From NCBI GenBank assembly GCA_027579435.1, contig JANBPK010000926.1:62001-126000 (forward strand): DNA of 64,000 bases. The letters run 5' to 3'. Origin of the DNA: Candolleomyces eurysporus. Taxonomy: Eukaryota; Basidiomycota; Agaricomycetes; Agaricales; Psathyrellaceae. The translations under genes and the position numbers were made by a program. Every line of letters begins with the position of its first letter. Within the stretch, counting starts at the first letter, position 1. The notes beneath the pieces are model-generated. The model searched no databases. It was not told the DNA's origin and worked only from the letters and a program-made list of their open reading frames with translations. This document shows positions 5,324 to 57,429 of the stretch, piece by piece.

Positions 5324-5697
5324 ATGTCAAACGGTCAGAATCTAGCCTTCATCAGTCACCCTCTCCTCAACACTCACTGTGAGCTACAGGGTCATGTGCA
5401 ATGTTTAACAATGCTACGCAGCGAGTCTACGGAGGCTTCGTCTCCCCTGTTGTTTACGTTTGGGAGACGAACGACCCACTCAATTCTTGGTACGCTGAGG
5501 CACGACGTAAGTATTAACTGCGGGCCATGTTATTCCTGGTGTGCTGATTTTTTACAGTTATCAGTGGCAACAGCGTTGTAAGGAGGTTTAACCAAGCATC
5601 GGCCCCTAAAAGGCAGACAGCGAAGGACCTCGCTGCGAGCAGTGCATACCAATGGCTCCGCACTCAGTTCCCAGATATCAACCTGACTAACGCCTAA
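5324..5697 (+). CDS. Small dsRNA-binding-motif-like protein, copy 1
   Basis: Three exons (5324-5333, 5390-5506, 5558-5697) encode 88 residues. The first exon is only 10 nt and supplies Met-Ser-Asn plus one base. The central exon carries the family signature VWETNDPLNSWYAEAR at about residues 28-43. The last exon has KRQTAKDLAASSAYQWL at about residues 60-76. That segment resembles the C-terminal KKxAKxxAAxxAL helix of dsRNA-binding domains, and the order helix, strand-rich middle, helix also fits. The family assignment is by pattern only. Exon and intron boundaries were fixed by aligning five copies: introns of 56 and 51 bp, central exon always 117 nt. No signal peptide or other domain is present. 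RNA binding is inferred. Confidence 0.82.
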
Positions 5698-7434
5698 AGA
5701 GGTTCTCCGTTCTCCGAGAGACATGGTCACAGATTTGCAGCGTGGTGTCCAGATGTGTCTTATGTTGAGCGTAGAATCATATTTTCTGTGGGAAAGCGAC
5801 CCGGTACTCGATAATAGTAGGCAGCTGATAACGAGGTGAAATAAGCGCTGGGGTGACATAGACGGGATCTGTGATTAATTCCTTCTGTACCGGATGCATA
5901 ATCAAGGTCAACCCGATGAAATAAGGCACAAGTTCGGAAGAAGTGCATGCAGCCAGAATCAAGATAGTCTAGACATAGTTCGGCCCAGATATGGCTGAGC
6001 TGTACATGTATGAAATGAACGTAAAGGCCAAGGAAATCTGAACCCACCGGGTTGCCGAGTCTTGCCGAGTACTCAAGGGATCCAAAAACGCCGACCGGCG
6101 TTCCTCTCTGCAACCGGGCCACCTCTCCCGGATCTGTCATTTTTGTTCTTTTCCCTACTCCGCCATCACACTCGGTGCCGCCGTCCCTTTGGATTTTGCA
6201 GGCAAACCGCTCCTCCTCTGCCCCGGCTTCTGCCGTTCTTCGGCATGCTCCTCGGTCTTGCGTGCCGTTTATGGACTTCCATTCCTCTCCCTCCTGCGCT
6301 TTCCGTTCAGTTTGTACGGTTACCGTATTATTTAATTCATTTTTGGCTCATCGACATGTTCTTCAGCACACAATACACGTATCGCTCGCTTTTGAGTTCC
6401 ATCCCCATCCCTTGGCAAGGGGTTTCACCCTCCCGCTGGAGCATCATCTACGCTGTTGACAGTGGCGAGACTGGCGAAGCGCTGATGGATCGTAATGGGA
6501 TAACAACAAAACGAAGTCGAATGGCATGCACAGCGCCAGCAACGCGTAATACACCTTTTAGTCGCTTTTCCTTCCAAAGTTAACGCGTAATGCTCCGCTC
6601 GTTACTTGAATCGTGACGCATAACGGGCGTGGCGATCGGAATGTTCCAGTATATGGCGAGAAAAATTGTATTGCACTGCACGGGATATGACGAGAAATCG
6701 AGGGTGCATTTTCACTCCTGAGAAGAATGAAGGAGCCGACTGGTGTTCCTATTATGGACCTGAATATCAAGTTCACGAAGTGTAACATAACTTCCTGGGG
6801 GGTCCCCATCAGCTAAAGGTCGACAGTCCGACTAGAAGGTAGACCTTGGGAATCTACTCGATGGGTACCATTCGGCCGATTCACCATTCCACTCGCTTCC
6901 ATTCATCGATTACGATCTCCCAACCTAGATCCGTCGGCTTTCCTCCCTGTATGACCCACAGCAACATGTTCACCATACCTTGGCCGCTGAATCCGCTGGT
7001 GGGCCAATGGATTGGAATGAAGACTCCTGCCTGAGCAAGGACGCAAGGCTATCTGCTTTACATCATGCCACGGATTGGATTCTAGCTCAGTAGGAACTGC
7101 GGTAAAGAAGCTGGATGCGCTGAATTTGCTGGAAATCGCTACTTTGAAATCTGTTTCCTACCAGGCAACATGTATAAAATGTGGAGATCCTTCCGGTTTG
7201 AGCTGACATTTGGAACATGAGAGCGAAAGCAGGGCTCGAGGCTAATCGAGGTGGACATGATGCGCTAAGCGTGACATCTTTCATGTCGGCCGCGCATTCC
7301 AGCGCTTAACAACGGGTGATTTAGTCACCGCCGCGCCTCCATCGCGGTCTCCGACATCGGGAATCTAACCAAGGATGGAGAGGTAGCTGTGGATCAAGTA
7401 GAGCAGCACCGCCCTACTGCTACGTCAATTTATT
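5698..7434. other. Spacer between dsRBM-like genes 1 and 2
   Basis: The first 350 bp resemble the sequence after gene 2 (for example the phrase ATGAACGTAAAGGCCAAGGA near 6014, compare about 8848). An imperfect hairpin, AACGCCGACCGGCGTT, lies near 6087. The decayed acidic gene found in the other units is absent here. No further gene recognised. Confidence 0.45.
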
Positions 7435-7545
7435 GGAAAGGTCAAAATACAGGAATGAATATGAATGTGAAGCGATAAATTCGGGTCCTAACCTCACAGG
7501 GCCAAGTCAATCCCACGAGATACCCTCATTTCTAATAAGATACCA
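7435..7545. repeat. Conserved distal upstream block of dsRBM-like gene 2
   Basis: Direct counterpart of 4180-4290; shares the AATACAGGAATGAATATGA phrase and the GGGCCAAGTCAATCCCA phrase. Confidence 0.55.
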
Positions 7546-7589
7546 TACCCGGACGGCGGTCACGTAAAGGGCGTAAATTTGTGGCGACG

Positions 7590-7900
7590 TGAGGAATTAT
7601 TATTTTTATCATTGGGATTACAGACGGGATTCGGCAGCCTCGCAAGGAATTATCCAGAGAGACAGGATTTGGTGACTTCATAAGGATTCATTAGGGCGGA
7701 TTTAACCTTCCCAAGAGTTTTCCATGGAGGCAGGATTTGGAGCTATTATGAAGATTTTTCAAGACGGTTATCCCGCTCCTTGTCGGGAATAATCTAGATG
7801 GATAGACAGAATTTGGCGCCCTTATGAGAATTCGTCAAGCTGGTTGGCCCGTTCTTTATCAGGGACGATTTAGTAGAATTCCCTCCTGGAGAACCGTCAA
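7590..7900. repeat. Minisatellite of about 72-bp units upstream of dsRBM-like gene 2
   Basis: About four degenerate units share GACAGGATTTGG, TCGTCAAG and GGTTATCCCGCTCCTTGTC-like phrases with the array at 4330-4680. It ends about 300 bp before the start codon at 8197. Confidence 0.65.
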
Positions 7901-8143
7901 AATGTAATCTAAGAGCAACAGACAGCAGACAGATTGTGCGATCTTCCGAGGAATCGATAAATCATATAGATTTCATCGTGCCACATTCCCTAACGAGGGA
8001 TGAGTATATTACAGATCTGAGCTCGGTGCCAATAAGCTCCTGCGGAAGGAGTAACAAGCGAGGATGGCTTATTACAAGGCGAAATATCTCGGTCAATTCT
8101 CCGCGATCGGTCTCGAAAAAGGCTACCAGTATGCAGTCTCCAA

Positions 8144-8151
8144 TATAAAAG
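8144..8151 (+). promoter_or_regulatory. TATA box of dsRBM-like gene 2
   Basis: TATAAAAG, 53 bp before the ATG at 8197, at the same spacing as in copies 1, 3, 4 and 5. Confidence 0.65.
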
Positions 8152-8196
8152 AGGGCTGCAGTACTGGTCGTGCTGCAGAGATAGTCGAAGAGTACC

Positions 8197-8585
8197 ATGT
8201 CTGACGGTCAGTATTTGGCCCTCATCCTCCACTCTTTCCCTGAACGCTCATCGAGCAACTTCAAATCACAGGCTCGTGTGCAAAGTTCAACAATGCTACA
8301 CAACGAGTTTACGGAGACGTTGTTTCCTCCATCGTTTACGTCTGGGAGACGAACGACCCACTCAATCCTTGGTACGCAGAAGCTCGAAGTCAGTACCAGT
8401 CCGTGAACGTCCTTCCCATTTGCTAAAGTCAATTTTTTACAGTTGTTAGCGACAACGACGTCGTAATCAGGAGGTTTCCCCAGGCTTCGGCACCTAGGAG
8501 ACAGACGGCGAAGGACCTCGCTGCGAGTGCTGCATACCAGTGGCTCCGAACTCAGTATCCGAATATCAACCTAACTAACGTTTGA
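8197..8585 (+). CDS. Small dsRNA-binding-motif-like protein, copy 2
   Basis: Exons 8197-8206, 8272-8388 and 8443-8585 encode 89 residues, with introns of 65 and 54 bp. This copy is closest to the family consensus. It starts MSDGSCAKFNNATQRVYG, then has a hydrophobic strand VVSSIVYVWE, the invariant core NDPLNPWYAEAR, a strand pair IVSDNDVVIRRF, and the basic Ala-rich helix RRQTAKDLAASAAYQWL. It ends in INLTNV. The alternating pattern is what one expects of an alpha-beta-beta-beta-alpha dsRBM. Upstream lies the same CCAAT, TATA and minisatellite arrangement as copy 1. No catalytic domain is attached, so the product would be a free-standing dsRBM microprotein. Confidence 0.85.
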
Positions 8586-9454
8586 AGGGGCTCGATGTAC
8601 CCCGAGCTATTATCACAGAGTTGCAGCGTGTATGTCTAGATATGCCGTATGTTGAGCGAAGAATCAGTTTTTTCTGTGAAAGCCACGTGGTGACGCTCGC
8701 GTGGGCCGCTTATTACGACGTCAAATAGCGGTGAGATGATCGGTGCCTTTATCGATGGGTTCCTTCAGTTATGTTTCAATAGAACAAAGCCGAATAAGCA
8801 TATGTTCACGGGCTCACAGTAGTCCAGATATCCCTGTACGTGGGAAGTGAACGTAAAGTCCAAGGAACCCTAAATTCGAACCCTCAAATGCGACAGGGTT
8901 CACCTTCGGAAAAACGATCCAAAACGTGGTCGCTTGGCCTGGAATTAACCCAGCGCATCATCTCGCCATCGAGGATCAATTACCCTACCTCGCTACAGGT
9001 CATGCATCATGGGTGGCGAAGAGAGGTGTGCGCCTTGGTACCTTGCAGATGCTCTCTTTCCCAATCCTCCACCATTACTCATGCAGTTTGCGGCATTTCG
9101 AATGCTATGTACAGGAAGCTAAGATAACGAGTATGTGTCGCTCTGAGGATACCCTCAAAGAGGGCCACCAGAACCAAGCTGCCGTTGCTGGCAACAGCCT
9201 CCGAAAGCTTTGCCTTCAGACATGTCTAAGAACGGTTTTGCGCTGAGGTCCTTCGGACTCGTTTGAAATCACTTTTCAGCTGAGCCCGTATACGTACCGC
9301 CAACTAGGCGACAGGACAGCCGACGCAGGTCGACATCACGCACCGTGGCTAAACAGCACGTGAAACGACGTTGCATTCATCTTGCCAGCAACCATCGTCG
9401 TTTGCTGGTGCTCTATCCTCTCCACTGTCCCTATTATCACAAAGAATTGGAAGA
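8586..9454. other. Spacer after dsRBM-like gene 2
   Basis: Starts with a segment shared with the region after gene 1. Otherwise no supported gene. Confidence 0.4.
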
Positions 9455-10490
9455 GAATGGAAATGGCATTTTCAATGCACATGCAACCCTCACTATCGAC
9501 ACCGTTTGCATCACCGAACCACCAGGCGATGCCGACAGCCCAAGGTCATCGGGAACAGCGACAGCGATATTTTAACGCCTAACCAGAGGACGAGTACTTC
9601 GTTCCAGTTCTCCAGCCAAGACCTGTTTGCTACTCAGACCTCCATTCGAACTCGGCACCAAAGTCTGGAGACCCTAGGATTGTGAGCTAGAGCTGGAGCT
9701 GGAGCAGGGGTACAGGCAGCGGGGCCATAGACAGCGCACTGGCTTATATCACCAAGGAAACGAGCTCAAGCCTCTGACCTCGAGCCCCTTCACTCGGAGC
9801 TACAAGACAAGGGGAAAGATGACATGGACGATGGCGAAGACATTTCCAGTTCACATAATCCCCCAGTCACTCAGATGGGCCTCTTTCCTACATCCCCGAA
9901 CCGCAGCACCGCCGCCACTCCAGGGAGCGCCTCGCGCTCAATATGGGTGTGGCTCGATCTGCCCGCAGGCAGTCGAAGAACCTGGACCGTGGCCGCGATG
10001 ACCACGATCAACCCTCCCCTCGTCCAGCGCCGCAAAGCACAATACGAATCCATGGGTACTGGTACCCTACGTTCAGAATCCAACACCTTGTGGCACGTAA
10101 TGTTGATGTGGATGAAAATTCGTGTTGCGCATTTTTGAGAGGGGCTTAGGAGGAGGTATATCGCGACGGTGACGAAGGCTAGGGAGTCTGAATGAAGAGG
10201 TACCCCGCTAACCCTCTTCTATTGTATTATGATTCTGATTGAGCTTGATCACAGAAAACATGAACTGCAAACTAGAACACGCCCACCGCGTCTACTGCGC
10301 ACACGAAAACGGAAGCTCGATTGACCCGGACATCGAGGACGCTAATCAATGGTAGGAGGAGCTCCGAGTCGAACCTCCTCTCTCCCGCCATCTGCTCCTC
10401 CAATCTTACTCTACTACTTTCCTCCCCTCCTCTACCTCTTTTCCTCGTACTCCTCGTCGGAACTTTATCTATCGTATCATGCTTCAACTA
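9455..10490 (+). pseudogene. Decayed copy 2 of the acidic low-complexity gene
   Basis: Aligns by eye with both exons of the intact gene at 20158-21858. The start region (about 9462-9500) has the same Met-His-Met-Gln-Pro codons. The block near 10010-10060 matches the Pro-Leu-Val-Gln-Arg-Arg segment, and about 10260-10350 matches the start of exon 2. Stops and frameshifts are frequent (for example a TAA near 9573), so no long product is possible. Confidence 0.75.
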
Positions 10491-11239
10491 GGAGTTCTCG
10501 GAATGCTTAATTTGCATTTTTGTGATCTGTAACACGGACTCACCGAAGAGTACGTCGGTCGTCGAATTTCCGTGATACAGTTTTGTTCGAAGCGGGATTT
10601 TTGACCTTTCCGTCTTCGACCTTCCCGTCTGATACAAACTTTCACGAGCCGAATTTGAATTGCCTAAAACTAATCTTCGCAACTTTGAGAAGGCTGATCA
10701 GTACGTGGGGACCCTGTCCTTCCGTCGGCATCTTCATTGTCCTGAAAACCTCGGGACCTGCTGCTCCCGCTTGCTTCAGATTATTCGCTTGAGTATCTTC
10801 CGTGGATTCTTTTCAAAGTCGCGTAGTGTAGCGGGAGATCGTACGAAGGATAATCGACAGAGGGTTAGAGCGTTGGACATAAGCGGGAGTGTTTGCACAT
10901 CAGAATGTCGCGCGAGGCGGCTCACCGCTTGGTGAGCCTCACGCTCACATCTTGCACTTAGTAGTCTACGACTCCTATAGATCGGGTCTTGTGCTACGTG
11001 CTTGCGAGCCGCTTAAGCTGAGAGCTCTCAGTAATGTGGAGTACCCGTTACACGTAGTACTCGGTATGCCATTTTCGAAATCTTGCAGCCATAGCACTCG
11101 AGTGCGCTAACAAACCTTCTGGGCCGTCTTCATCACTTAATCCAGAGATGATCCTTAGACGCTGCCGTGCTAGGAGATAGTGGCACGTAGGCGATAGTAG
11201 GCCATTGAAGTCCAGGGGGTTGAAAGGTCTGGCCAGTCC
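10491..11239. other. Unassigned spacer
   Basis: Partly similar to the stretch after decayed copy 3 (16390-16930). No gene recognised. Confidence 0.4.
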
Positions 11240-11960
11240 GAGTCGCCTTTATGTACATGCCTATCCAGATCCTAACTTATTATGCACCGCGATGTGTCTA
11301 CAAGGCTGGCAGGAGTAGAATATGCAACCGTAAGGGATGTAGTAGAAGCAGAGTCTGCGTACGTTGCCAGAGCTGGGGAGAAGCCACAACAGCCGGGTTG
11401 TTGTATGCCGTGGACAATGAGAGAATCTGAACTGAAGGAGTACCACCAAAGTGTACTTCTTCGCATCCCGCACCCCGAGTCCCTGCAAGTATGCTGGCTT
11501 CTCTGATACAGGGAAGCTGTGCATAACGTTGCTTACCCTGCTCCCGTATCCCAATCTAACGTAGTATTCACGTCAATGCTCTCTGACTCGACCTCTTTTC
11601 ATTCTTGGGGGATCGGGAGGCTAGGGTGGAAGCGCCTCCGAACCTTCTTGGGGAAACAAACTGCATGAATGAGTACCCCAAAAGCATCCCAACATTTATT
11701 TCGACTGGCTTAGATATACTCGGGAAATTGTGTTGGTCTAACCATGAGTGTGGGTCTTCGCACTGCTATTGTGGTTTGTCGAGACTCCAGATCGCGATAC
11801 GTTTGGTCTTGGAGAAACTGGGGATCATCATATTCGAAGGTGCCGCCGCATCTGTCATGTCAAACTCTTCTTGCTGGTATGATCATTTTCTTGCGCCATG
11901 TTGGAAGAATCTAAGGAAATATATTATATCATACTCCATTCGAGTATGGTAGAATCATAA
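11240..11960. repeat. Duplicated non-coding segment C, copy 1
   Basis: Shares long stretches with 16925-18010, for example CAAGGCTGGCAGGAGTAGAA at about 11300 and 16990, and the GGGGAAACAAAC phrase at about 11650 versus 17623. Frames are not conserved between the two copies, so it is probably not coding. It contains one unit of the roughly 98-bp element that is triplicated in copy 2. Confidence 0.65.
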
Positions 11961-12719
11961 AGGGACCATAGCAAAAATAGCAAACACTAATTTCGCAAAC
12001 GCAAGGGCGAGTCGCGTTTTGATGCAAACCCAGAAGACTTGAGCGTCTAACACAGAACATTCTTAGAGACTATTCTCCAACCGGTCATATTAATTTTGCT
12101 ACGAATGTTGGAGTACCTCTTAGTCGAGTGCACGAGGCTGTAGCAATACAAGTAGAGCCAAATTGTGTGCATTCAATCGCGGCGTCGCAGCATCTCGGAT
12201 GCAAACGTTGGGACTCGGAGGCGAAAGGCGGAAGCTAGAAATAGAAATCAAAATTGGGTGTGACGGGAGAGGCGCTGTGGTTGTAATATAGTTCGCTCTG
12301 ACCATGAGAAAATTCAAACAGCTGAGCAAACGATGACTGTTGTCGACACTGCGTAATTTACGTGTGATGGAATCGAAATCGAAAACCTCCGCACGTACGC
12401 TGTCATCTTGCTTCGAGGGTGAGGACGACCAATGATATCGTGGCGCTTATCGATCGATCGGGGATTACCATATTCTGGCAGCCCACGTTTATTTACATGG
12501 GTCGAAAGTCTGGGCGATGACGACATGAAGAGTGGCTTGTAATTATGTGTGTGGTCTAGAACAAAGATTCGATCGGTCCACTCAGACAACAGAACAGAAG
12601 ACCCCGCAGAATTTATCCCCTGATGCAACGTCTCAGGGTACAGGCAGAGCAACTGGAGCCCAAGTGTGGGCAACAGGGGTGTAAAATCATCCATCAACTC
12701 GAGGGCGACGAAGGGGAGA

Positions 12720-13950: not shown

Positions 13951-13958
13951 TATAAAAT
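13951..13958 (+). promoter_or_regulatory. TATA box of dsRBM-like gene 3
   Basis: TATAAAAT, 55 bp before the ATG at 14006. The minisatellite and CCAAT motif found before copies 1, 2 and 5 are not seen here. Confidence 0.6.
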
Positions 13959-14005
13959 CCCCAAGGAAGGCCGAATTCTTGCATCGGAGTACAGCGGAAG
14001 GTTCC

Positions 14006-14383
14006 ATGTCTGACGGTGGGTATTCGACTCACATCATCTGTCCTCTTAGCCCTCACTGTGTAGCTTCAAACCACAGGGTCATGTACGAAGTTTAATAACG
14101 CTACGCAACGAGTCCTTGGACCCACCATCTCCCCTATCGTTTACGTTTGGGAGACGAACGACCCACTCAACCCTTGGTCCGCCGAAGCCCGACGTAAGTC
14201 TCAATGTGTGAGTGATGTCCTTCCCAGTACGCTAACGTCGACTTTATTAAAGTTTTCAGTGGAGATGATGTTATAAGGAGGTTTCCCCAGGAGTGCGCAC
14301 CTAGGAGACAGTGTGCAAAGGACCTTGCTGCGAACACTGCATACCAGTGGCTCCGCGCTCAGTATCCAAATATATTAACTTGA
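14006..14383 (+). CDS. Small dsRNA-binding-motif-like protein, copy 3
   Basis: Exons 14006-14015, 14077-14193 and 14253-14383 encode 85 residues (introns 61 and 59 bp). Compared with copy 2 it has Ser for Tyr in the core (NDPLNPWSAEAR), two extra Cys in the last exon (PQECAPRRQCAKDLA) and a shorter tail ending PNILT. The Ala-rich helix (AKDLAANTAYQWL) is kept. The upstream region belongs to the segment-D type, so its promoter differs from copies 1, 2 and 5 although the TATA spacing is the same. Confidence 0.82.
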
Positions 14384-15399: not shown

Positions 15400-16390
15400 A
15401 ATGGTTTTTCCAATGCACATGCAGCCCTCACCATCCCGTATGGTCGAGAAACCGGGCTCAAGCCTCTCAAATCGAGTACACCCGCCCGGAGCGCTCCAAG
15501 CAAGACGAAAGGGAAGACAACATGAACGATAATAACGGCCATCCAAACCTCCTTCCCGCTCCGACACGTCTCCTTCCCGTCTCCTCCAACTAGCAGTCGC
15601 AACACTACTGTCCTAGGGAGCACCTCCGCGTTCAACATGGGTATGGTTTGGTCTATCTGCAGACGGCCCAAAAATGTAGGCTACGACGACGACAAGTTAA
15701 ACCCTTCCCCTCTTGTCCCACGTCGATGAACCCAATACAAATCCACGGGTCCTATCACTTTACCGCGAGGATTTAACACCCTCACCCCCAGTCGGCGATT
15801 CTCACCTCCACGTCCTAGTTCTTCGGCGGTATCCTCGCTGTCGTGGTCTCATCACCTACGAGCTCGCCACCCGTGGCCGCCTTCTTCGAGCGTCCGTGAC
15901 ATGTTGATGGGGGTGGGGGCTCGCGCGGCGCGTTTTTGAGGGAGAGGTCTCCGAAGGGATAATTTTCGAGAGCAATGAATGCTAGGAGGAGGTCGGAAGA
16001 AACCGAAGATTAATTTACCAATGAGGATGAAGACAGTGGTAATGAAGAGGAGGAAGGGAGGATAGACTCTGAACGACGAGGTATGCTGCTGACCTTCTCA
16101 TACTGTATTGTGTGATTCTGATTGAGCTTGTTATACTTATACAGCTCTTCAGCTCAATTATAATGAACGTGAACCAGCGTGCCTACCGCGTCTTCTACGA
16201 AAAATTGGAAGCTCGGTCGACCCAGAAATCGAGGACGTCAGTCGGTGGGAGGAGCTCCGAGCCGAGCCTGTTCCCTCTCGCCATCCTTCCCCCGGATCCA
16301 ACTCTACCACGTTCCCTTCCTCTACTTCTTTTTCTCCCTACTCCTCTTCCTCTCGAAACTTCATTTACTGTACCATGCTTCAACCTGGAG
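15400..16390 (+). pseudogene. Decayed copy 3 of the acidic low-complexity gene
   Basis: Parallel to both exons of the intact gene at 20158-21858. The Met-His-Met-Gln-Pro start is near 15412. The Ser/Pro/Arg-rich middle runs to about 15910. Exon 2 starts near 16140 after a TACAG acceptor-like end, and an ATCGAGGACGTCAGTCGGTG block at about 16226 equals about 21330. In-frame stops break the product. It lies directly after intact dsRBM-like gene 3. Confidence 0.78.
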
Positions 16391-16924: not shown

Positions 16925-18010
16925 CAGTGGTCCTTATATACATTGCCCAATCACATCCTAACTCTTGCACCGCGATGCGTCTCCAAGGCTGGCAGGAGTA
17001 GAAAATGCAACTGTACGGGATGTAGCAGAATAAGAGTCTGCACCCGTTGCCAGAGCTGAGCGGAAGCCGCATCAGCCATTCGGTTGTAGCAAGTCATGCA
17101 CAGCGAGAGGATGTGAAACAAAGGAATACCTACAAAGTAGCTGCTTCTTGGCACCCCGCTGCCTGAGTCCCCTGCTAATATGCTGGCTCCCCTGATTCAG
17201 GGAAGCTGCCAGTGTACTTAACGTCGCTTGATCCGCACCGATCTCCCAGTCTGACGTAGTACTGACGTCAATGGCTTCTGACTCGACCCCGCTCTCCTCT
17301 ATCAGCACCAGTGAGTCCCTAAAAGTATACCCTGCACTGAGATCCCAATCCGACCTAGTACTGACGTCAATGCTTTCTGACTCGACCGCTCCCTCCTTGC
17401 TCCTCTATATCAGCCCCAAAAGCATACACCGTACTCATATCCCAATCCGAACTAGTACTCACGTCAATGCTTTCCAGATCTGACTCGACCTCCTCCCTCC
17501 TCTATATCAGCACTAGTGAGTCCCCAAAGACACTCCGGCATTCATTTAACTTTCCCCTTCATTCTTTTCATTCTCGGGGAGTCGAGAGGCTATAAGTGGA
17601 AGCATATTCTGAACCTTTTTGGGGAAACAAGCCGCACCAATGAGTGCCCTTGTTCTGTTACGGTATTCCCCCTCGTCATCTCCCTCCCTTACCTCTCGCT
17701 CTCACAGCCCCTCTCCTCTGTCCGCCTCCTTCCTTTTCGTACTTTTACCCTACTGCCTGTACCGTAACTGTCCAGTCTCATTATGGGTAATAACACGAGT
17801 CTCACCTGATTTCTGACAGTTCCCAAAGCATCCCATCACTCAATTCCCCTTTCACTCGCACTCGCTTAGATGAGCTCGGAGAATTGTGTTTGTTTGACCG
17901 TGTGTACCCAAGGTCCTCGTACTATCATTGTGGCCCATCGATTCGCGATTGCGATATTTTGGTCTCGCAGAAGCTCGAGATCATGATCATCATGTTTGAT
18001 GCAGATGACT
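16925..18010. repeat. Duplicated non-coding segment C, copy 2
   Basis: Counterpart of 11240-11960 but longer, because one internal unit was tandemly triplicated (17241-17530). On the minus strand a TATATAAGG lies at about 16934, but no conserved reading frame follows it. Confidence 0.6.
17241..17530. repeat. Three tandem units of about 98 bp containing ACGTCA motifs
   Basis: Units begin near 17241, 17340 and 17438. Each carries CCCAATCCGA-like sequence followed by TAGTACTGACGTCAATG. The 8-bp palindrome TGACGTCA (CRE/ATF type) is perfect at 17263-17270 and 17362-17369, and altered to TCACGTCA near 17458. Only one unit is present in segment C copy 1 (about 11540-11600). Confidence 0.65.
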
Positions 18011-19402: not shown

Positions 19403-19410
19403 TATAAAAG
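19403..19410 (+). promoter_or_regulatory. TATA box of dsRBM-like gene 4
   Basis: TATAAAAG, 56 bp before the ATG at 19459, followed by the conserved GGAGGAAGGCTGAAGTCTTG leader. Confidence 0.65.
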
Positions 19411-19458: not shown

Positions 19459-19830
19459 ATGTCTGACGGTGGGTATTTGTCCTTCATCCTTTACTCTCTT
19501 TGCGCTCAATATGTAGCTCCAAACCACAGGCTCATGTGCGAGGTTCAACAACGCTACCCAACGAGTTTTTGGAGGTTTCGTCACCCCTGTCGTTTATGTT
19601 TGGGAGACAAATGACCCACTCAACCCTTGGTACGCCGAAGCCCGATGTAAGTGCCAATTTGTGAGCGGTGCTACTCACAGTGTGCTAATGTCGACGTCTA
19701 TACAGTCATACGTGGCGACAGTGTTGTGAGGAGGTTTCCCCAGGCATGCGCGCCTACGAGGCAGAGGGCAAAGGACCTTGCCTCGAGCACTGCATACCAG
19801 TGGCTCCGCACTCGGTATCCGAATATTTAG
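19459..19830 (+). CDS. Small dsRNA-binding-motif-like protein, copy 4
   Basis: Exons 19459-19468, 19530-19646 and 19706-19830 encode 83 residues (introns 61 and 59 bp). It keeps MSDGSCARFNNATQRVFGG, the core NDPLNPWYAEAR and the C-terminal helix AKDLASSTAYQWL. The stop comes right after the helix (YPNI), so the tail is six residues shorter than in copy 2. It is the only direct-repeat copy followed by an intact acidic gene (start 20158, 327 bp downstream). Confidence 0.82.
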
Positions 19831-20157
19831 GCTAAATAATTTTTGAAGAGCTTCGGCATTCTCCGATCGATTATTCCGTCACGAAGTTGCGGCGTCGTAT
19901 CCAGGTGTTGGACGAAAGAATTTTAATTGTCTGTGAGAAAGCGCCTGGGCGTCTACGCGGTCCGTTAATATAAATCAAGGATCAAAGCGGCACGCAGCGT
20001 GACGGCGCGTCATGTCACGGACCCCTAAAACGTGACATCACGCGTTTTCGCTCAACAACGCGTCACGCTCTCCGTTGAACAGTCTTGTCAGCGACCATCG
20101 TCGTTGGCTGACCCTCGACACCTTCTCCACCGTCCTCATCGTCTCGAAGAACTGGAC

Positions 20158-21858
20158 ATGGCTTTCACAATGCACATGCAGCCCTCATCATCGACACCGT
20201 TCACATCACCGAACCACCAGGCGACGCCGACAGGTCAAGGCCACCAGCAGCAACAGCAGTTGTTTTTTACGCCTCAGCAGCCTAGAACGAGTAATCCATT
20301 CCATTTTCCAGGCCAAGATCCATTCTCCTTCTCGAGCCTACAATCGGATTCGACACCGAAGCCTGTGGAGACCGGAGGATTAGGAGCTGGAGCAGGGCAG
20401 AAGCAGAAGGGCCATAGACACAGCACTGGCTCCTATAGTCGAGGAAGCGGGTTCAAACCCCTAAACTCCAGTCCACTCGCCCGAAGCTCCAAGTTGGTCG
20501 AAGACGAAGATGACATGGACGACGACTTCAGCTCACACCAACCCTCCTCCCCACTCGGACGCGTCTCCTTCCTCCCTCCCCCAACTAGTAGCAGTACCAC
20601 CACTGTTCCCGGGTTCAACATGGGGCTAGCTCGGTCTACCCGCAGACGGCCCAGGACTCTCGGACGTGACAGCGACGACGATGACGACGAAGTGAACCCC
20701 TCCCCCCTGGTCCAACGTCGTCGAGCCCAATACAAATCGACGGGTCCTAGCACCCTACCAAGAGCCAACACATTCACCCCCGCTCGAAGATTCTCAAGTA
20801 CACGTCCTAGTGCTTCGGCTATGTCCTCGCTGTCGTGGGACTCTTCCCCATCGAGCTCGCCCCCTGTGGCAGCCCTGTTCGAGCGTCCACGTAATATTGA
20901 TGTAGACGAGGACCCCCGTCGTGCGTTTTTGAGGGAGAGGTTCAAGAAGAGGTATTTTGCGAGGGCGACGAAGGCGAGGGAGAAGGCTGTTAAGGCGAGG
21001 AGGAGGAGGGTGGAGGGGACTGAGGATTACTTTGCCACTGAGGACGAGGAAAGTGATGATGGTGGAATCGGGGGCATCAGGAAGAGTAAGGGCAAGGGAA
21101 AAGCGATTAGTGACGACGAAGATATGGACGACGAGGAGGAGGGTGAAGAAGAGATTCTCAATGATGAGGTACGTTTAGTATCTTCCCTACCCCTTTTGCT
21201 ATATTTCTAACTAGGGCTGTCATCTATACAGCTCTTCAGCCGGATAGTCGCAAACATGAACCGCAAAATGCAACACGCCTACCGCGTCTCCTACGCACAC
21301 GAAATAGGGAGCTCGTTCGACCCCGATATCGAGGACGTCAGTCGGTGGGAGGAGGAGCTGCAAGCCGAGCCTCGTACTTTCCCCGCATCTTCGTCTGCTA
21401 CCTCTCTGCCCTCCTCGTCTTCGCACACCTTCCCACCATCCTCTTCGGGCACCTTGCTCACACCCTCCTCGTCCGGATCCCGGTCAGGTACTGCACGTGC
21501 AGACATTGGCTCTTCCCCACCCCGTGCTCCTACTGATTACGAGTACGACGGAAATGACGAGGACGAAGACGGCTTTGCGGACTTTGAGGACGCGGAGATC
21601 GAGGCGTACGCAGAGGAGTATGCTAGGGCTATAGAGGCTCAGGAGCAGGGGCAACAACAGAACAACGCTGGGAATGTGCTCTCGCAAAACGACGTGAGCA
21701 GCGGTAGCGTGCAGACAGGACAGGAAGACCTCTTTGCGGGACTCGAGGATATACCAGAGGACGAGTTGTTTGGGGAGTGGAATTGGAGTGAGAGCGAGGC
21801 TGAGGGTCCGGGTATTGGGGCGAAGGTGGATGAGGATGAGGATATGGATTGGTCTTGA
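20158..21858 (+). CDS. Hypothetical acidic, low-complexity protein (only intact member of its family here)
   Basis: Two exons, 20158-21168 and 21232-21858 (intron 63 bp, GT-AG), encode 545 residues. The Met at 20158 was chosen because the decayed copies lose similarity upstream of this point. An in-frame Met at 20032 would add 42 residues. The N-terminal 250 residues are Ser/Pro/Gln-rich with an acidic patch (EDEDDMDDD, about residue 118). At about 257-290 there is a strongly basic, helix-prone stretch (FKKRYFARATKAREKAVKA) followed by acidic runs. Exon 2 opens with a charged segment LFSRIVANMNRKMQHAYRV, the best conserved part in the relics. Glu/Asp-rich regions follow to the end (DEDEDMDWS). 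No known domain is recognised. Composition suggests a nuclear disordered protein, but that is inference. Confidence 0.75.
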
Positions 21859-23314: not shown

Positions 23315-23324
23315 ACTTATATAC
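23315..23324 (-). promoter_or_regulatory. TATA box of the small secreted peptide gene
   Basis: GTATATAAGT on the minus strand, followed by a CT-rich leader that leads to the ATG at 23198. Confidence 0.5.
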
Positions 23325-24306
23325 GTCTTTTCTGTGGGATACGGCTAGGCACACAAAGGTCCACCCCAAAGCGGCAGTTCGACACTGATATTCAATTGAA
23401 GGTAAGAAATCTGATCCCGCTTCAGCAAGTTTCCCGTCATAACGAGGTAGCGACTCGAACGACAGCACGAACAAGTGGCACCTCTGCCACCTGTCTAGGC
23501 CGCAAATGAGGCGAAAGCTAGTGATGTTAGATATTCCGCTGGGAAAATTCGGTGTAGGACCCATAAACGCGCTTCCCAAAACGGAGGTCGCCTTGTCTCT
23601 TTATGCTTCTGTTCATCAAACGAACATCTCTATATGGTAGGATGTAAGCCAAACATTGCCAATACACGAGGCAAAGAGACATCCCTGCTATTGTACGGTG
23701 AGTGCTGAATCGCTTTGCTTCGCAGCACTGAAGTGACGAGCATTAATTGAGAGCGCACACTTGCGTGCGCAAGTATCCAGAGAATTTTGCTCGTCTAGCG
23801 TTAAGATGTTTCGCTTGGACTAAGAGACGACTAAATACAGGTGTTGCTTTGAGCGAAGCGATAGAACTACATGACATGAGGCATTGCATCCAAACTCAAT
23901 TACAATCCAACGAGGTGATATTTGATGGAAGACGCTTGATGCTAGGCGAAAGTCCTATGCGTGATTACGGATAGCAAACTCCGCCGTTAGCAACCGATGA
24001 AGAAAGTAGCAACCACTCGAGACTGTCAAGTCATCGATAGCCAGCAGAACGAACGCTGCTCTGAGGACCTGGTGTAAACGTTAGCTGCACTGTGGCTCGA
24101 ACGAACATATTTGGGCTTAGGTGGCCAAGGCGTTTCTCAAGAGCGCTCGAGGCTTGTTTCTAATGGTGCCCTTCACCTCTACGCAACGGGTCAGGAGAGG
24201 GGAGAAGGTCATGTCAGCCCAGGTGAGTTTACTATACATGAAAGGACAAGATTCCTCTCGACAAAGACAAGATGCAAAATTTACTAAAACACCAGCTAAA
24301 CTAGCT
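23325..24306. other. Unassigned intergenic stretch
   Basis: Open frames are short and unsupported on both strands. Confidence 0.4.
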
Positions 24307-27300
24307 CTACGTCAAATCAATAAAATCAATGGGCGTAGTCTTCGGCGGTTCTCGCTGCTTCCTCTTCCGAGTGGTCGTACGAGTAACATTTACACCAGAC
24401 GACAGTGAGCTAGAGTTCGAAAGTGCCGCTGTGTCCGCCACCGAAGTCCGCTGTGCACTCGCGGCGACACCCGCATCCACATCCCCGCCCAAAGCACCCA
24501 CCACACCGGTTGACTCGACGGGTGTGAAAGCCTGTTNCCCCCTGAACAGCTTTCAGCACATCCGCATACCGCTCTCCCATAACCTCCTTTAACCAGTCCT
24601 TCTTCTCCCCAACCTCAACCGCCTTCAAGAATGCCATCGCCGCAGCCTGCCTTCCGCTCCACGTGTACCGTGCCATTGCCTCCTTCTTCTTTGCAACAAC
24701 AAGCGTATGAGGCGAGCCAGTCGTAATCGTGCGCTGAGTGAGGAGGTCCGAGGCATCGTAAGATATCCGTATTTCGAGGTGCTGTCGTCGGCCCGCCACG
24801 GCTTTGAGCTTGAACTCATCCATTGCGTTCAAGTCGTTCAACCAAGCTTCAAGCTGAGTACAATCTTCGCAGGTGGGTCCACATTTAATGGTGCGGTTGA
24901 GTTTCGGGATGGCCGATTTTGATCCTAGAACGTGGACGAGATACTTAGAGACGAGGTTCTGGATGAACGTTGCGAGCGGCGGCGACGAAGACAATGATCG
25001 GCTTCTGGAGGGGTTATGCTTCTTCAAAACCTGTCTGAGCTTCGGGATTAACGGAACGTAGACGCTCTTGAACATATCCGCAATGTCCTCTCCGTCCTTT
25101 CTCTCCAGAATCATTGCCAAGAGCTCGGAGCATGGTCCCATCTCCCCGACCGTGAAGCATAGATCGACCATCTCGGCTATCCGATCCGTCCTCGATGAAG
25201 GTGAGTTGGAGGCGTTCGACCTTGAGGTGTTATTGTAAATATGAGTAGTTCGCTTGTTAGAGGTCCGGGCAATAACGTCCCACTGTCGAATCACTGCCTG
25301 AACACACTCGTGGATAACACCTCCAACGGTCAAGGAAACTGTTGGGGAGGAACCGTCATTCTGATTGGAAGGGGCAATTCCGGAGAATTCTTCGCGGTGT
25401 TGATATAAACCTTTGGCAAGAGCAGCCAGGAAGAGGTATGACCCATTTTGATTTGACACGTTTTGAATGATCCTGGCAACCAGAGAAGTGGTGAGAAACG
25501 ACGGAGCAACGGAAGAAATATGAAGAGATGTGGAAGTGACAGTACTCACCTCGTCTGAGCAACCTCTAGCCCCACCTTTTGCAGAGCAGAAATGATGGTC
25601 GGTATGTCGTCGACCGAGTTGGCCGTGTACGAAGATACTGCGTCCCTTAGAAGTCTGTCTGTCCACGCAGGACTAGCACCATCGCCTCCTACGAGATTAG
25701 AGATCAAGTCAATAACCTTGATGCGCTCCTGGAGCGACTCGGAGGACCGTCCGACATATTCTTCAATCCTATGTTTTGCAAAAGATCAGAATTCAAATTA
25801 ACGACAGAGTTCACGCAGAACCGCTCACCCAGCTTGGATCGAGGCTAAACCGAAGGCGTCTAAAGCCTTCTCAATCCCTTCTCCAATTGATTCAACTCTT
25901 TGACTACCGCAATACGGGAAAGCCTCGTTCCAGAGTTGAGGGTCCTTCCAGCTGATTGCATGGTTCATCAGAGGTTGGACACACTCCATCGCGGAGTCTC
26001 TTCCGGCTCTCAACTCTGAAAGTGCACGAGCAGCCACGGTTCGAGCGTCTGGTGTTGGTGGGCTGGAAAATATATCCAGAGTGTTAATAGCCCAAAGAGC
26101 CCCTTTGACGTCCAGTAATACGGAGATTTCGTCTTCCTTGCGAAAGATAACGAGCACGGACCGGTCGTACCCTGTGAAGAGCATGATTAGGGTGAAGAGG
26201 AAGAGAGAAATCGTTGTACGAACAGTAGTCTAACGTGCCGGATTCCTGAGGCAAGACAGGGTCCACGATTAGTCAATTTCGAGAACTGGCAGGAAAATCG
26301 AAACGAGCAACTTACATTCCCCATATACCCTTCATACTCTGTCCTATCGGGCGACTTTCCGTCAAATGCGCCCTCAGGAATAACAGACTCTCGAGAAATA
26401 GTAAACTTTCCCAAATCCAAACTCTTTCCCTCTGTAATCGAGACACAATTCTTGATCTCGTACTCTTCCTCTAATACTTCAACCATATCCGGTCCATCAC
26501 CACCCACACGTTTGTTATCTCCCTCAGATTCATCCTCATCTTCGTCTTCGTCCGAGTCATACCGACCGCGCTTGTAATAGCATTCCCCGTAGTCGTCTGC
26601 GTAACCATGCTGAGCGTATGTCAAGTTCGCTAGGCAGACTGAGAACCCGAGTTCCTGAGCGAGAGGGAGGATGTGTGCGGCTTTGTGCGCGTCGGAGCCT
26701 TTGAGGCACTGCAAACCCTTCTTAAAGTCACTGGGACTATACTCGTGCGATAGCGCGTACGCCATGAGAGGAGGTTCTTGCTCAAGTTCATATTCCCCGT
26801 TCTTCCATCGCACCAACACCTCCCGCAATACAGCCAAGGCGGTGTGCATGTTCGAGAAAGAAGGTCGAGGAATGCTGGGAGATGTGTTAATCAGGTTGTA
26901 AGAGAGGGCGAGTCGGTATCCAGATGTGATAGGTTTGACTTCGTGGACGACGTCGGTGTACCATGCTAGAATGGAGGTGTTGAATTCGGAACCCTTTGCT
27001 ACGTCGATGACTGCGTTCTGTCCTGAGTGGGAGACGTGGACTTCGCCACCCTCAAAGGCTGAAGGAAGGACGAAGACAACCGTTGCGAACATCCCATCCG
27101 CTTTGTAAGTACTATCATCCAAATGGTTAGCATACAACTACTCGACAGATTTCGAGGGTCAATCTTACTCTTGATGAGGCAGAAAGCTGTTCGAGGGGGC
27201 ATGAGTGGCATGTCAATTAAGGCTTAGTGAGAGGGTGCCTACTGGGAGCCAGCCTGATAGAGTAAGATCTTGTACAGCTCACACCGGGGCCTTGTGTTCC

Positions 27301-27797
27301 ACGGTGCAACCCCCAGAGCAGTCCAAATCGTGATCGACGCGAGTTCGTCGACATACTCATGCCACTTGGGATTCTTCAAAGTAGCACACGTAGGGTCAAT
27401 CTCCCAGGTATCTCGTACCGTCGTATCGATGAGAGTTTGGTCGCCTTTACCAAAAGGTGCTTGTGCTGCTCGCGAGATGAGGAGTTGGGCGTCGCGCTCA
27501 GGAAGCGGTAGCCCTATCAGACCAATGCCCTCGATTACCAAGGATGGATTGGGCGCGTTTGAGGTGGTTAAAGAGTGGTAGAAACTCCCTTTAAAGTCAA
27601 AATCCGCGGCCAGTGCGCCATTCAAGTCAGCCTAAAACACGATCAGCATATTCGGAGACGTGGCATCCACAAGCAATGAAACACACGCAAAGGTCTCCAG
27701 TACAAGTCTGTCTCGAGCCAGTTTTTGTCCCAATAACAGTCTGATTCACGTTTTCTTGGCTGTTTTGTGTCCCCCCTGTCGCAGGAGCAGCATTCAT
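24307..27797 (-). CDS. 2OG-Fe(II) oxygenase (prolyl-4-hydroxylase-like fold) with long C-terminal region, copy 1
   Basis: Eight exons (27687-27797, 27243-27631, 27169-27186, 26316-27111, 26224-26245, 25829-26171, 25550-25768, 24307-25472) encode about 1020 residues. The ATG has an ACC context. Exon 3 is only 18 nt and carries the first metal ligands. The facial triad reads H171-x-D173 (FLPHQDT) and H229 (DVVHEVKP), followed by R239 (SGYRLALSYNL), the usual 2-oxoglutarate-binding Arg. The family hydroxylates protein or other substrates using O2 and 2-oxoglutarate; the substrate here is unknown. An acidic insert (DEDEDEDESEGD) follows near residue 370. The helical C-terminal half has two CxxC-like Cys pairs (KCGPTCEDC) and ends in basic TRKRKQREPP then DFIDLT. 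The N at 24537 must be ignored to keep frame. The inverted paralogue at 37623 confirms all exon borders. Confidence 0.88.
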
Positions 27798-28112
27798 GGT
27801 GGGTGTTGAGAAAGGAAAACGCGATGACGCCCGTTACCAAATGAAACGTAATGATCTCCAGATTTTGCTCCGCTCTCACCTCTCGCTCCGATATTCCACT
27901 CGATACTAGTACTGATAGATGCTGAGAACGCATTTCTGGTCGTCCGACAGGGACCTCAGCTTAAAAGTGTCCGAGCGTCAGTATAGAGTTGTCCGAGCTC
28001 CTAGATAGGGAGCACGTAAAAGGAATACTCGAAAAACATCCCCATCAAAGACATTCTCGGTGACAGCTAATATACATCGAGATTCCTAGTCGTAATCACA
28101 GCGCTGCACGAG
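27798..28112. other. Intergenic region, presumed promoter of the oxygenase
   Basis: 315 bp between two minus-strand genes. No clear TATA seen. Confidence 0.45.
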
Positions 28113-28694
28113 TCAAGTAGAACTAGCCTCCGGAACAAAGATACAATGTCGGCAATTCGCGCCCCACGAAGTAGGTACGGCATGGAACCCTGGTTCACAA
28201 GTCGTCTCCGTAGTGCAAGGTCTTTGTGCTTCCTGGGGGATTGGACCGCATCGACACAAAAGCGGACAATCGGTGCCCGGCTCGGGTTCATAGACGTAGC
28301 AAGATCCGGTAGGACAGATGAAAGGAGGGCAATAGATGTAGGATGTACAGGTTCCAGTGGTGGTCGTAGGAGATGTGGTTGTCCGCGTTGGTGCGGTTGT
28401 CGTGAGTTCAAAGTTGTGGTCTAGAGAAAAAGATCAGGGTGAGTTTGATTCTGAAGAGAGAAAATAACTTACATTGCGATGCTTGGCCTCCTACAGGGGC
28501 TGGCGTAGCGACAGCGCTAGTGGCAGCTCCACCTAGGGGCAGGTAAGCAGTCTAGTCTCCGAAAATTGCCAGAGAATCCGGAGGGAAAGAAGGATATGTC
28601 TTTCGGATCGTCCTCACCTACTTTCCATCCCACTAACCACCTGCAGCACATCCGCAAACACGAGTAATGAGAGACTCCTGGATAGATTGCGCAT
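28113..28694 (-). CDS. Small secreted cysteine-rich protein (146 aa)
   Basis: Exons 28622-28694, 28473-28532 and 28113-28420 (introns of 89 and 52 bp) encode 146 residues. The start MRNLSRSLSLLVFADVLQVV is a plausible signal peptide, cleaved near VSG. A Thr/Pro-rich linker (TTTAPTRTTTSPTTTTG) follows. The C-terminal domain has eleven Cys, with CPPFICPTGSC, a CRC and a terminal NCRHC pattern. The spacing suggests a compact disulfide-bonded domain, but I do not recognise a named family. The odd number of Cys leaves one unpaired or allows dimerisation. A TATATATC box lies at 28765-28775, about 75 bp before the ATG. An effector-like or cell-wall role is only a guess. Confidence 0.72.
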
Positions 28695-28764
28695 TTGAAT
28701 GAGACGCTCGGAGGAAGTGCAATCGATGAAGAGGCCAACAGGTACCCTGAGACGCATTGCTCAC

Positions 28765-28775
28765 GATATATATTC
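28765..28775 (-). promoter_or_regulatory. TATA box of the cysteine-rich protein gene
   Basis: GAATATATATC on the minus strand, about 75 bp before the ATG at 28694. Confidence 0.5.
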
Positions 28776-29033
28776 GAACGAGAGGATTATCCGAGGAAAT
28801 CAGTCAGGTGGCAGCCTAGGGTCTCGGCCTGAAAAGTGTGTGTGAAGCACTGATATCATCCCCTGGTCTGGCATTCGCAAAAATTCAGTCCTCGGAGGCT
28901 GTCTGTCTGCACAGGTGGAGTATTGAAGCCTCATTGTCGCTACATAGTACGTTGTCTAGAAAAGGCCGTAATGTGGACGTAGCTTGGTCTGTAGAAAGAC
29001 ACCGTGCGGTAACTGGTGCGTACAGATCTTCTC

Positions 29034-29088
29034 ATCGTCCTGGGGGATATGGTCTAAAATCGTCCTGGAGGATATGGTCTAAAATCGG
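29034..29088. repeat. Short tandem duplication, about 26 bp
   Basis: TCGTCCTGGGGGATATGG, then TCTAAAA, is followed at once by TCGTCCTGGAGGATATGG, then TCTAAAA. Confidence 0.8.
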
Positions 29089-29495
29089 CCGGATGTGTGA
29101 ATTCCAGCCCACAAGCAGTGTTACAGTATGATCCTCAAATGAGGCAGAGGTTTTCGAGTCCAGGTCCCCTCAAAGGTTGTTCAAAGCTTGAGCAAGATCT
29201 TCAAATTTCTGCCCGTAAGAACTTGTCGATCGTGGAGCGTCTCCAAGTAGGCTTTGAGTTTGAGTTACTTGAGTAATTCCATTGAGTTTTCCTGCAGTAA
29301 TTCCTTGATTTTGCAGGCGACCCAAGTCTCCGTCCGTTGAGGATCAAACATGTACGATAGCCTGTCAATGTTGGGCAAGGGGGCTGGACCCCTTGGGTAG
29401 ATGCTCGAGCGAACTGACGGCTTTGAGTTCCATTTAGTGGGAGGGCGAGCAAGGGAAGCTAGGAACGCTAAAGAAATGGATGAAACAGGTCGTGA

Positions 29496-29933
29496 GGTCA
29501 ACGGTTAGTAGCTTTTTGGCCGCTCTGACAAACGAGGTCGTATATCTCGCTCGACCAGGATGAAGATAACCAGGTCTTGATCTGCGAAAACTCACCTCCA
29601 TGAGTTCTTTGTAGGCCTCTGGACAATCCCTAAATGTATACAGTTGCAACCCCAGTGACCAAAGGGAGTATGCCCCAAATGAGACTAGTAACCACAAAGC
29701 AACTAATTGCGGGACGGTGAGATGGTTCCGAATTGGTTTCGACGTCGACGATTGGATAGAGAGCGAATGTATGGACGAATGAGCGGCTTCAGTATACGGC
29801 TATATTTCATGTCATATGACATATACCACTGGCAGAATGGTTGCAGCAGTAGCTTTGCTGACAACGGGCAGAGCAATAATCTGAAAGAAGGCCAGTATGT
29901 AGATGACGGTGAGGATCGATGCGCCCTCGCCAT
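29496..29933 (-). pseudogene. DPM3: Relic of dolichol-phosphate mannosyltransferase subunit 3
   Basis: Exon 2 (29596-29702) reads LWLLVSFGAYSLWSLGLQLY then TFRDCPEAYKELME. This is the diagnostic DPM3 stretch with the conserved second membrane segment and the F-x-D-C motif. Upstream, from the ATG at 29933, a hydrophobic segment (LTVIYILAFFQIIALPVV) fits the first membrane helix, but it is out of frame with the MARA start by 2 nt and with exon 2 by 1 nt. Downstream only traces of the coiled tail remain (AKKLLTVD near 29500-29525). DPM3 normally anchors the DPM1 catalytic subunit in the ER for N-glycan, O-mannose and GPI synthesis. Because the gene is essential, an intact copy should exist elsewhere. 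Sequencing indels could exaggerate the damage. Confidence 0.65.
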
Positions 29934-30590
29934 GTTGCGCTGAGTGAGAGCTTTCCCTTCAGATGAGGTGGCTAGAGTTGGACTAAAGTTTTTGAAACTG
30001 AACGGCCAGCGTTGATACTGGTTTTGTGAACAAGCTTGATAGTAGCGCGNAAAAAATCAAACACCGTCGTTACATCAATATTGCTACGAACGATGGTGAA
30101 CAACCAAGTAGAGCGAGTTCATGACGATACTGCAACACTAGACTGCGAACTAGACTGCGAACCACGCGCCAGTCGATCAGGTGTCCTCACTTTTCCGACG
30201 GTTGTTCTCACGAGGAACCCGGCACAACTGCGGCCTGAGGCTCTCTGGACTCAGGTTCATTCCCTACCCGTAGAGCTATATGTGGACCGGACCATGTCTC
30301 AAATATCTTGATTCCGATTACCTACGCTTCCTTCGACCGCACTCTGTCCTTATTTTGATGTGCGACCGAATGAATGTACCCAGATATACAAGGCATCCAT
30401 CGCAGATTAAGTTACTGATCCAGATCACCTCTCGCTTAGATCCAACACAGATAAATATCGAGCGCCCAGTGTCAAGCGCCGAGGCTGAGATACCGCCAAC
30501 TCGCTTTCTCACTGAAAATTCAATTCTCCGCTCCAAACGTAAGGCACATCAGCTGCAACTCTGACAAAATAGTCCCCCGAGATCGCCGAC
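29934..30590. other. Spacer downstream of dsRBM-like gene 5
   Basis: A stretch around 30075-30160 resembles 12090-12155 (ATTGCTACGAACGATGG-type phrase). Near 30148 ACTAGACTGCGA is duplicated in tandem. A single N lies at 30050. No gene supported. Confidence 0.4.
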
Positions 30591-30972
30591 TCAACCTCTT
30601 CCAGCATTAGTTGTAAACTGGGCGCAGAGCCGCTGGTATGCGTAACTTGCAGCGAGGTCCTTTGCTCGCTGCCTCCTCGGCGCTGATGCCTGGCGAAACC
30701 TGAGTACAACATTGTTGCCACTGATAACTGTAAAAGGTCGACGTAAGAGCACTGGGAAGGACATTGCTTACACTTACTTACGTCGAGCTTCGGCGTACCA
30801 AGGATTGAGTGGATCATTTGTCTCCCAAACGTAGACAACGGGGGAGACGATGCCTCCAAAAAACTCTTGTGTAGCATTGTTGAACTTCGCACATGAACCT
30901 TGAATTTGAAGTTGCGCAGTGAGCGTTGAGGAGAGGGTAGAGGATGAAGACTAGATACTCACCATCGGACAT
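30591..30972 (-). CDS. Small dsRNA-binding-motif-like protein, copy 5 (inverted)
   Basis: Exons 30963-30972, 30782-30898 and 30591-30727 encode 87 residues (introns 64 and 54 bp). The core NDPLNPWYAEAR and the helix RRQRAKDLAASYAYQRL are kept. A shift in the helix-1 region gives TQEFFGG instead of TQRVYGG, and the tail (FTTNAGRG) differs from all other copies. The upstream cassette (TATA, CCAAT motif, minisatellite, distal block) is the one found before copies 1 and 2, inverted. This copy therefore arose from that subgroup by an inverted or ectopic duplication. Confidence 0.8.
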
Positions 30973-57420: not shown

Positions 57421-57429
57421 GAACGGACC

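What the first reader, a model, noticed from the sequence alone, without database searches (positions are those of the whole stretch)
5324..30972. Five-copy family of dsRBM-like microproteins with a 10-nt first exon
Five genes of identical three-exon architecture (10 nt, 117 nt, 125-143 nt) encode 83-89 aa proteins. They keep a core NDPLN(P/S)W(Y/S)AEAR and an AKDLA-Ala-rich helix like the end of a dsRNA-binding domain. All five are open with intact splice sites, in a block where neighbouring genes have decayed, so they appear to be under selection. Free-standing dsRBM microproteins could modulate Dicer, ADAR-like or antiviral RNA pathways; that role is inference.
Basis: partly seen in the sequence, partly recalled or inferred. 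Interest (0 to 1): 0.85.

Follow-up and report, generated by a model that had tools for sequence, protein, structure and literature searches.

The report
Mushroom array of lone dsRNA-binding-domain genes
A mushroom genome carries about sixty places that encode a tiny protein made of nothing but one double-stranded-RNA-binding fold; five lie in this window and evolve as working genes, perhaps to tune RNA silencing or antiviral defence.

Summary
The five gene models are correct, but the contig holds nine copies and the assembly 62 places. The genome is very probably Candolleomyces eurysporus. The "10-nt first exon" is probably only the coding part of exon 1. The predicted fold of an annotated family member is alpha-beta-beta-beta-alpha (pLDDT 91.6), closest to dsRNA-binding domains such as DGCR8's; a diverged member agrees, and one relative passes the Pfam dsrm cut-off. 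Purifying selection is strong: dN/dS is 0.09-0.34 in all 36 pairs of the nine copies, while a co-duplicated neighbour is broken in five of six copies. The domain is not canonical: the helix-1 Glu and GPxH loop are absent, and KKxAK reads mostly [KR]QxAK. Constraint still peaks at the end holding those regions (pN/pS 0.13 against 0.50). Most likely these single-domain proteins bind or help bind dsRNA. That they modulate RNA silencing is inference: the machinery exists in the genome, but nothing here links them.

The parts
5324..5697 (+). dsRBM microprotein gene W1, 88 aa; coding exons 5324-5333, 5390-5506, 5558-5697
   Evidence: TATAAAAG at 5270
8197..8585 (+). dsRBM microprotein gene W2, 89 aa; coding exons 8197-8206, 8272-8388, 8443-8585
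   Evidence: TATAAAAG at 8144
14006..14383 (+). dsRBM microprotein gene W3, 85 aa; coding exons 14006-14015, 14077-14193, 14253-14383
   Evidence: TATAAAAT at 13951
19459..19830 (+). dsRBM microprotein gene W4, 83 aa; coding exons 19459-19468, 19530-19646, 19706-19830; lacks the C-terminal tail seen in most relatives
   Evidence: TATAAAAG at 19403
30591..30972 (-). dsRBM microprotein gene W5, 87 aa; coding exons 30972-30963, 30898-30782, 30727-30591; lies in a segment shared in inverted orientation with copy U1 at C1218:45k
   Evidence: TATAAAAG 56 nt upstream of the ATG
20152..21855 (+). passenger gene co-duplicated with the dsRBM gene, the one open copy: two open pieces (20152-21207 and 21211-21855) in one frame with a single stop between them, probably inside an intron; no Pfam match
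471..1404 (+). decayed passenger copy downstream of U4
   Evidence: 2 matched pieces in 2 frames, 15 stops
9457..10445 (+). decayed passenger copy downstream of W2
   Evidence: 3 matched pieces in 3 frames, 8 stops
15415..16317 (+). decayed passenger copy downstream of W3
   Evidence: 7 matched pieces (some overlap) in 3 frames, 6 stops

Best explanation
A family of stand-alone double-stranded-RNA-binding-motif proteins, found here in three species of one mushroom genus, expanded by tandem and segmental duplication and kept by purifying selection. Shown: gene structure, fold prediction of relatives, homology to dsrm, purifying selection, and constraint concentrated at the end of the fold that carries the dsRNA-contact regions. 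Inferred: the protein docks on dsRNA through that end with a basic [KR]QxAK patch at the start of helix 2 and a family-specific short T-N-D loop in place of GPxH, as one domain or a dimer. By occupying dsRNA it competes with or helps larger dsRNA proteins (Dicer, other dsRBM proteins) and so tunes RNA silencing or the response to viral and transposon dsRNA. Step by step: dsRBM fold about 0.95; functional genes about 0.97; direct dsRNA binding about 0.6; modulation of the RNAi or dsRNA response about 0.4.
Against: No window copy matches Pfam dsrm at E up to 10 (HMMER's filters drop most matches above about 0.1), and W2 alone finds nothing in the PDB. A dsrm scan of the whole assembly gives four places over the cut-off, none of them a family member; the family members it lists (C1040, C1124, C548) stay below it. 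The canonical helix-1 Glu is missing (N10 and N11 in 33 of 33), GPxH is absent, and the middle Lys of KKxAK is Gln in 27 of 33. By the definition in PMC11309768 (passages) this is nearer to type B, which is said to help stabilise protein-RNA or protein complexes. Net charge is only -2 to +5. PDB searches with single members are weak: for P0020 the top 11 of 14 matches were beta-lactamases at E 0.04-0.83, PKR came at 0.88; for P0009 an unrelated protein at 1.4 came before DGCR8 at 1.5. No transcript, small-RNA or binding data were available. The two residue sets were chosen, so that contrast is not an independent test.
Confidence: 0.5

Rival explanations
1. The proteins are dsRBM-fold microproteins in the strict sense: they bind protein, not RNA. 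They pair with the dsRBM of Dicer or of a dsRBM cofactor and titrate or scaffold it, as type-B dsRBDs do.
For: Two of three RNA-contact regions lack the canonical residues. The structural matches include dsRBDs solved in protein complexes: Loquacious dsRBD3, Staufen dsRBD5 with Miranda, TRBP with Dicer, DRB7.2-DRB4, ADAR1 dsRBD3 dimer. The conserved T-N-D loop and W37-x-A-E-A strand are family-specific and could be a protein surface.
Against: The basic start of helix 2 is kept ([KR]61 in 32 of 33, A64-K65 in 33 of 33), and constraint is highest at the end that would face RNA, although a protein partner could use the same end.
Confidence: 0.33
2. The proteins bind a particular structured RNA (ribosomal, mitochondrial or a non-coding hairpin) in a housekeeping or developmental role unrelated to silencing or defence.
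For: Mitoribosomal proteins and DHX29 are among the structural matches.
Against: A housekeeping role would not be expected to need about 60 places in one assembly and repeated tandem birth (the expectation is general knowledge). No targeting extension: the protein is the domain alone.
Confidence: 0.12
3. The array is a relic: unexpressed duplicates on the way to pseudogenes, with the apparent exons an artefact.
For: Some members are broken or partial: 9 of 62 places show only one exon match and 10 of the other 53 carry a stop flag. W3, W4, W5 and U1 have short or altered C-terminal tails.
Against: dN/dS 0.09-0.34 in 36 of 36 pairs; all nine C1218 copies open with GT-AG splice sites; five of six neighbours broken; TATA box in 9 of 9; proteins of the same domain are annotated in three species, one of them identical to my spliced model.
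Confidence: 0.03

Closest known systems
Pfam PF00035 dsrm, UniRef 'DRBM domain-containing protein' entries of Candolleomyces aberdarensis
   Same: Same family: P0005, P0009, P0013, P0014, P0018, P0019 and P0020 (45-56% identical to W2) and P0028 and P0029 (43 and 49% identical to P0002), 78-91 aa, carry the UniRef name DRBM. P0020 passes the Pfam cut-off.
   Different: The window copies fall below Pfam detection and were not among the annotated proteins found (best 64% identity over the full length).
DGCR8 dsRBD1, ADAR1 dsRBD3, PKR dsRBDs (PDB 1x47, 7zj1, 1x49)
   Different: Those are domains inside large proteins; here the domain is the whole protein.
Plant cofactors DRB7.1 and DRB7.2, which with DRB4 sequester inverted-repeat dsRNA (PMC8138440, one passage)
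   Different: No homology beyond the dsRBM fold was tested; many copies here; no DRB4-like partner identified. That DRB7 proteins have a single dsRBM is recalled.

Membership tests
dsRBM superfamily (PF00035-like) | alpha1-beta1-beta2-beta3-alpha2 fold | tested here: met
   (predictions for two family members, pLDDT 91.6 and 88.7).
dsRBM superfamily (PF00035-like) | Profile match to Pfam dsrm above the curated cut-off | tested here: inconclusive
   P0020 27.4 bits against 23; 11 of 19 relatives at E<=1; 0 of 5 window copies; no family member over the cut-off in the six-frame scan of the assembly.
Canonical (type A) dsRNA-binding dsRBD | Region 1: Glu in helix alpha1 | tested here: not met
   No column among 5-18 and 20 has a majority Glu; N10 and N11 are invariant in 33 of 33 (column 19 was not tallied). 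Region definition from PMC11309768 (passages).
Canonical (type A) dsRNA-binding dsRBD | Region 2: GPxH in the beta1-beta2 loop | tested here: not met
   Loop 30-36 has T30 in 33 of 33, N31 in 31, D32 in 29; the column counts leave no room for GPxH in any of the 33 rows.
Canonical (type A) dsRNA-binding dsRBD | Region 3: KKxAK at the start of alpha2 | tested here: inconclusive
   [KR]61 in 32 of 33; second position Q in 27, K or R in 5, H in 1; A64-K65 in 33 of 33; register from HMMER alignments.
dsRNA-binding protein | Binds dsRNA | not testable with these tools
   Needs a gel shift or similar.
RNAi cofactor (DRB/TRBP/Loqs type) | Partners a Dicer | not testable with these tools
   Only the presence of RNase III, Piwi and RdRP domains in the genome was shown.

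The most novel reading that the evidence does not exclude
A mushroom genus runs a large repertoire of lone, non-canonical dsRBM proteins born in tandem arrays. They read dsRNA through a T-N-D loop instead of GPxH and act as a tunable buffer or decoy layer between dsRNA and the silencing machinery, analogous in logic to an expanded immune gene family.
Probability: 0.2. Interest if true: 0.85.

Novelty: new variant of a known kind. Interest (0 to 1): 0.6.

Why it matters
dsRBMs are best known as modules of larger proteins such as Dicer, ADAR or PKR (general knowledge). A fungus that keeps dozens of free dsRBM domains, with selection shown for those tested, would offer a natural test of what a dsRBM can do alone, and of whether GPxH and the helix-1 Glu are needed for dsRNA recognition. 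It would also suggest an unexplored layer of dsRNA handling in mushrooms. The fold and selection are now well supported, so the binding question is directly testable with 90-residue proteins.

Tried and rejected
Considered and rejected: (a) decaying relic, by dN/dS and the passenger control; (b) first-exon micro-exon, by the TATA box position (no transcript seen); (c) secreted effector: the models start MSDGSCAKFNNA and go straight into helix 1 (H5-20), leaving no room for a signal peptide (by eye, no predictor run); (d) viral origin: among viral structures no match had E<=0.001; the top rows hold RNase III and dsRBM-type PKR inhibitors, but also an unnamed protein and a phage dGTPase inhibitor.

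Led nowhere: Pfam on the five window proteins; Pfam on 18 flanking open frames, 14 without match; PDB searches with W2 (none), P0020 and P0009; tRNAs in the window (none). Literature: the titles and abstract openings listed (1 of 1; 15 of 91; 10 of 91; 12 of 48; 12 of 21; 2 of 2; 8 of 19; 6 of 57; 2 of 2) do not describe this family, and (Candolleomyces, genome, RNA interference) found none; the unlisted papers were not seen. Papers were seen only as search listings, except passages of PMC12786890 (no mention of dsRNA, double-stranded, DRBM or tandem in the main text), PMC8138440, PMC4237382, PMC11309768 and PMC4701949 (not relied on).

Rows dropped: of 33 places inspected (its output was cut in the middle) 28 were modelled and 5 left out as broken or partial (second copy on C1133, C222, C216, C130, C1007). 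Of 28, three gave no model (C1099 105k, C1099 139k, C520 30k) and one (C1133 148k) was dropped for an N base in exon 3; 24 remain. The modelling script looked for a 10-nt coding first exon and tried a 117-nt second exon first, so the plan was partly imposed. 34 of the 62 places were not modelled. The 33-row alignment A4 left out near-duplicates and fragments. Two of three pairs in the dispersed set gave no dS (saturated). The stop counts include overlapping low-complexity matches: the open passenger copy itself scores one stop and an extra frame there, though none.
Full report
What is there. The five genes described are present with the stated exons. W1 is 5324-5697, W2 8197-8585, W3 14006-14383, W4 19459-19830 (plus strand) and W5 30972-30591 (minus strand). 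The introns are 51-65 nt, all GT-AG, and the products 83-89 aa. Forty-five columns are invariant among the five proteins.

How many. A protein search of the whole assembly (65.85 Mb, 1296 contigs) gave 115 matches. Grouped at 500 bases they are 62 places on 29 contigs; 53 of 62 have both large exons and 43 of those 53 have no stop flag. Nine lie on the window's own contig C1218 and 20, two of them partial, on C1099. Some contig pairs differ by only one to three bases in the gene (C109 with C1265, C146 with C82, C1124 with C548), which looks like two haplotypes, so the number of genes is below 62.

Which organism. P0002, annotated by NCBI as H1R20_g6086 of Candolleomyces eurysporus, equals letter for letter my spliced model at C1099:135k. 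The window is therefore very probably from that species (Psathyrellaceae). Relatives were found in C. aberdarensis and C. efflorescens and in unnamed sources, and in no other named genus; the search has limited sensitivity, so this is not proof of restriction. Two cross-species pairs are well supported (P0012 with P0028 and C1099_115k with P0005, both 100/98). The window copies themselves were not among the annotated proteins returned.

Gene models. A 10-nt coding first exon and a 117-nt second exon fit 25 of 28 models attempted, including relatives only 46-47% identical to W2; the script favoured that plan, and one of the 25 (C1133 148k) was later dropped for an N in exon 3. The first exon is probably short only in its coding part: a TATAAAA box lies 48-56 nt upstream of the ATG in 9 of 9 C1218 copies, within a block of raised conservation. 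Of 16 models elsewhere, one (C1133 148k) has a TATA-like box at that place, so the promoter is largely a feature of this array.

Selection. Pairwise dN/dS (Nei-Gojobori) among the nine C1218 copies is 0.09-0.34 in 36 of 36 pairs, with dS 0.44-1.21; the 21 pairs of seven C1099-type copies give 0.19-0.60. A simulation with substitutions only, which forgives loss of the last codons, puts the chance that one copy stays open at 0.17 for 0.15 substitutions per site and lower for more, hence about 1.1e-7 or less for nine independent copies; the copies are not fully independent, so this is a rough bound. The array carries its own control: a neighbouring gene was duplicated with the dsRBM gene in six of the nine units. 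Downstream of W4 it is open (20152-21855) in two pieces with one stop between them, probably within an intron. The five other copies are split over frames and match 178-450 of 566 residues (overlaps counted), with 0, 3, 15, 8 and 6 stops in the matched pieces. The same count gives the open copy one stop from overlapping matches (none). W5 and U1 share a further segment in inverted orientation.

What the domain can do. Canonical dsRBDs contact RNA with a Glu in helix 1, GPxH in the beta1-beta2 loop and KKxAK at helix 2 (PMC11309768, passages). In 33 family rows the first is absent (N10 and N11 invariant), the second is replaced by a short loop with T30 (33 of 33), N31 (31) and D32 (29), and the third reads mostly [KR]QxAK with K65 in 33 of 33. 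A PKR domain carries the same KQxAK (1x48). Loss of the loop motif does not exclude binding: HYL1 stays functional and keeps significant affinity without the loop, and Dicer dsRBDs with short loops bind dsRNA (PMC4237382, passages). Conservation is highest at the end of the fold that holds these three regions. In the nine copies pN/pS is 0.128 there against 0.500 at the opposite end; in the 33-row alignment only the unshifted one of 72 rotations reaches the observed difference. I chose those two residue sets after seeing the residue counts, and the topology is general knowledge of the fold, so this supports but does not test the idea.

Mechanism. I infer a protein that engages dsRNA, alone or as a dimer, through that end. 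Its likeliest use is to compete with or assist larger dsRNA enzymes. The genome has Piwi domains on 7 contigs, RdRP on 8 and RNase III on 4, one of the last below its cut-off, and plant DRB7.1 and DRB7.2 show that dsRBM cofactors can sequester dsRNA from a Dicer (PMC8138440, one passage). The main rival is a protein-binding, type-B-like role, which the missing RNA contacts favour.

Verdict.

Noticed in passing
window 54810-63850 (minus strand): Three tandem copies, about 3.2-3.4 kb apart and 69-89% alike in the matched blocks, of an aspartyl-protease-like gene (PF00026 in 2 of 5 pieces scanned, one of the two below its cut-off); the repeat continues beyond the window end.
   Followed up: partly
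window 52952-54271: 439-aa open frame with a sub-threshold tyrosine-recombinase match (Phage_integrase 20.4 bits, cut-off 27.1).
   Followed up: partly
window 49042-50637: Transposase family tnp2 (PF02992, E 8.9e-21) in a 531-aa open frame.
   Followed up: partly
window 24540-27568 and 37852-40810: Two related gene copies in inverted orientation, 66-71% alike, either side of W5; no Pfam match in the pieces scanned.
   Followed up: no
C1218:3300-33500 (upstream of the window): At least eight segments of about 2.2-3.2 kb, 69-77% alike, in both orientations: another large tandem family on the same contig, not identified.
   Followed up: no
window 17218-17510: Three copies of a unit of about 97 nt in tandem.
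   Followed up: no
C130:8060 and C130:13864-15269: A broken family member lies about 6 kb from two RNase III domain matches; probably chance.
   Followed up: no
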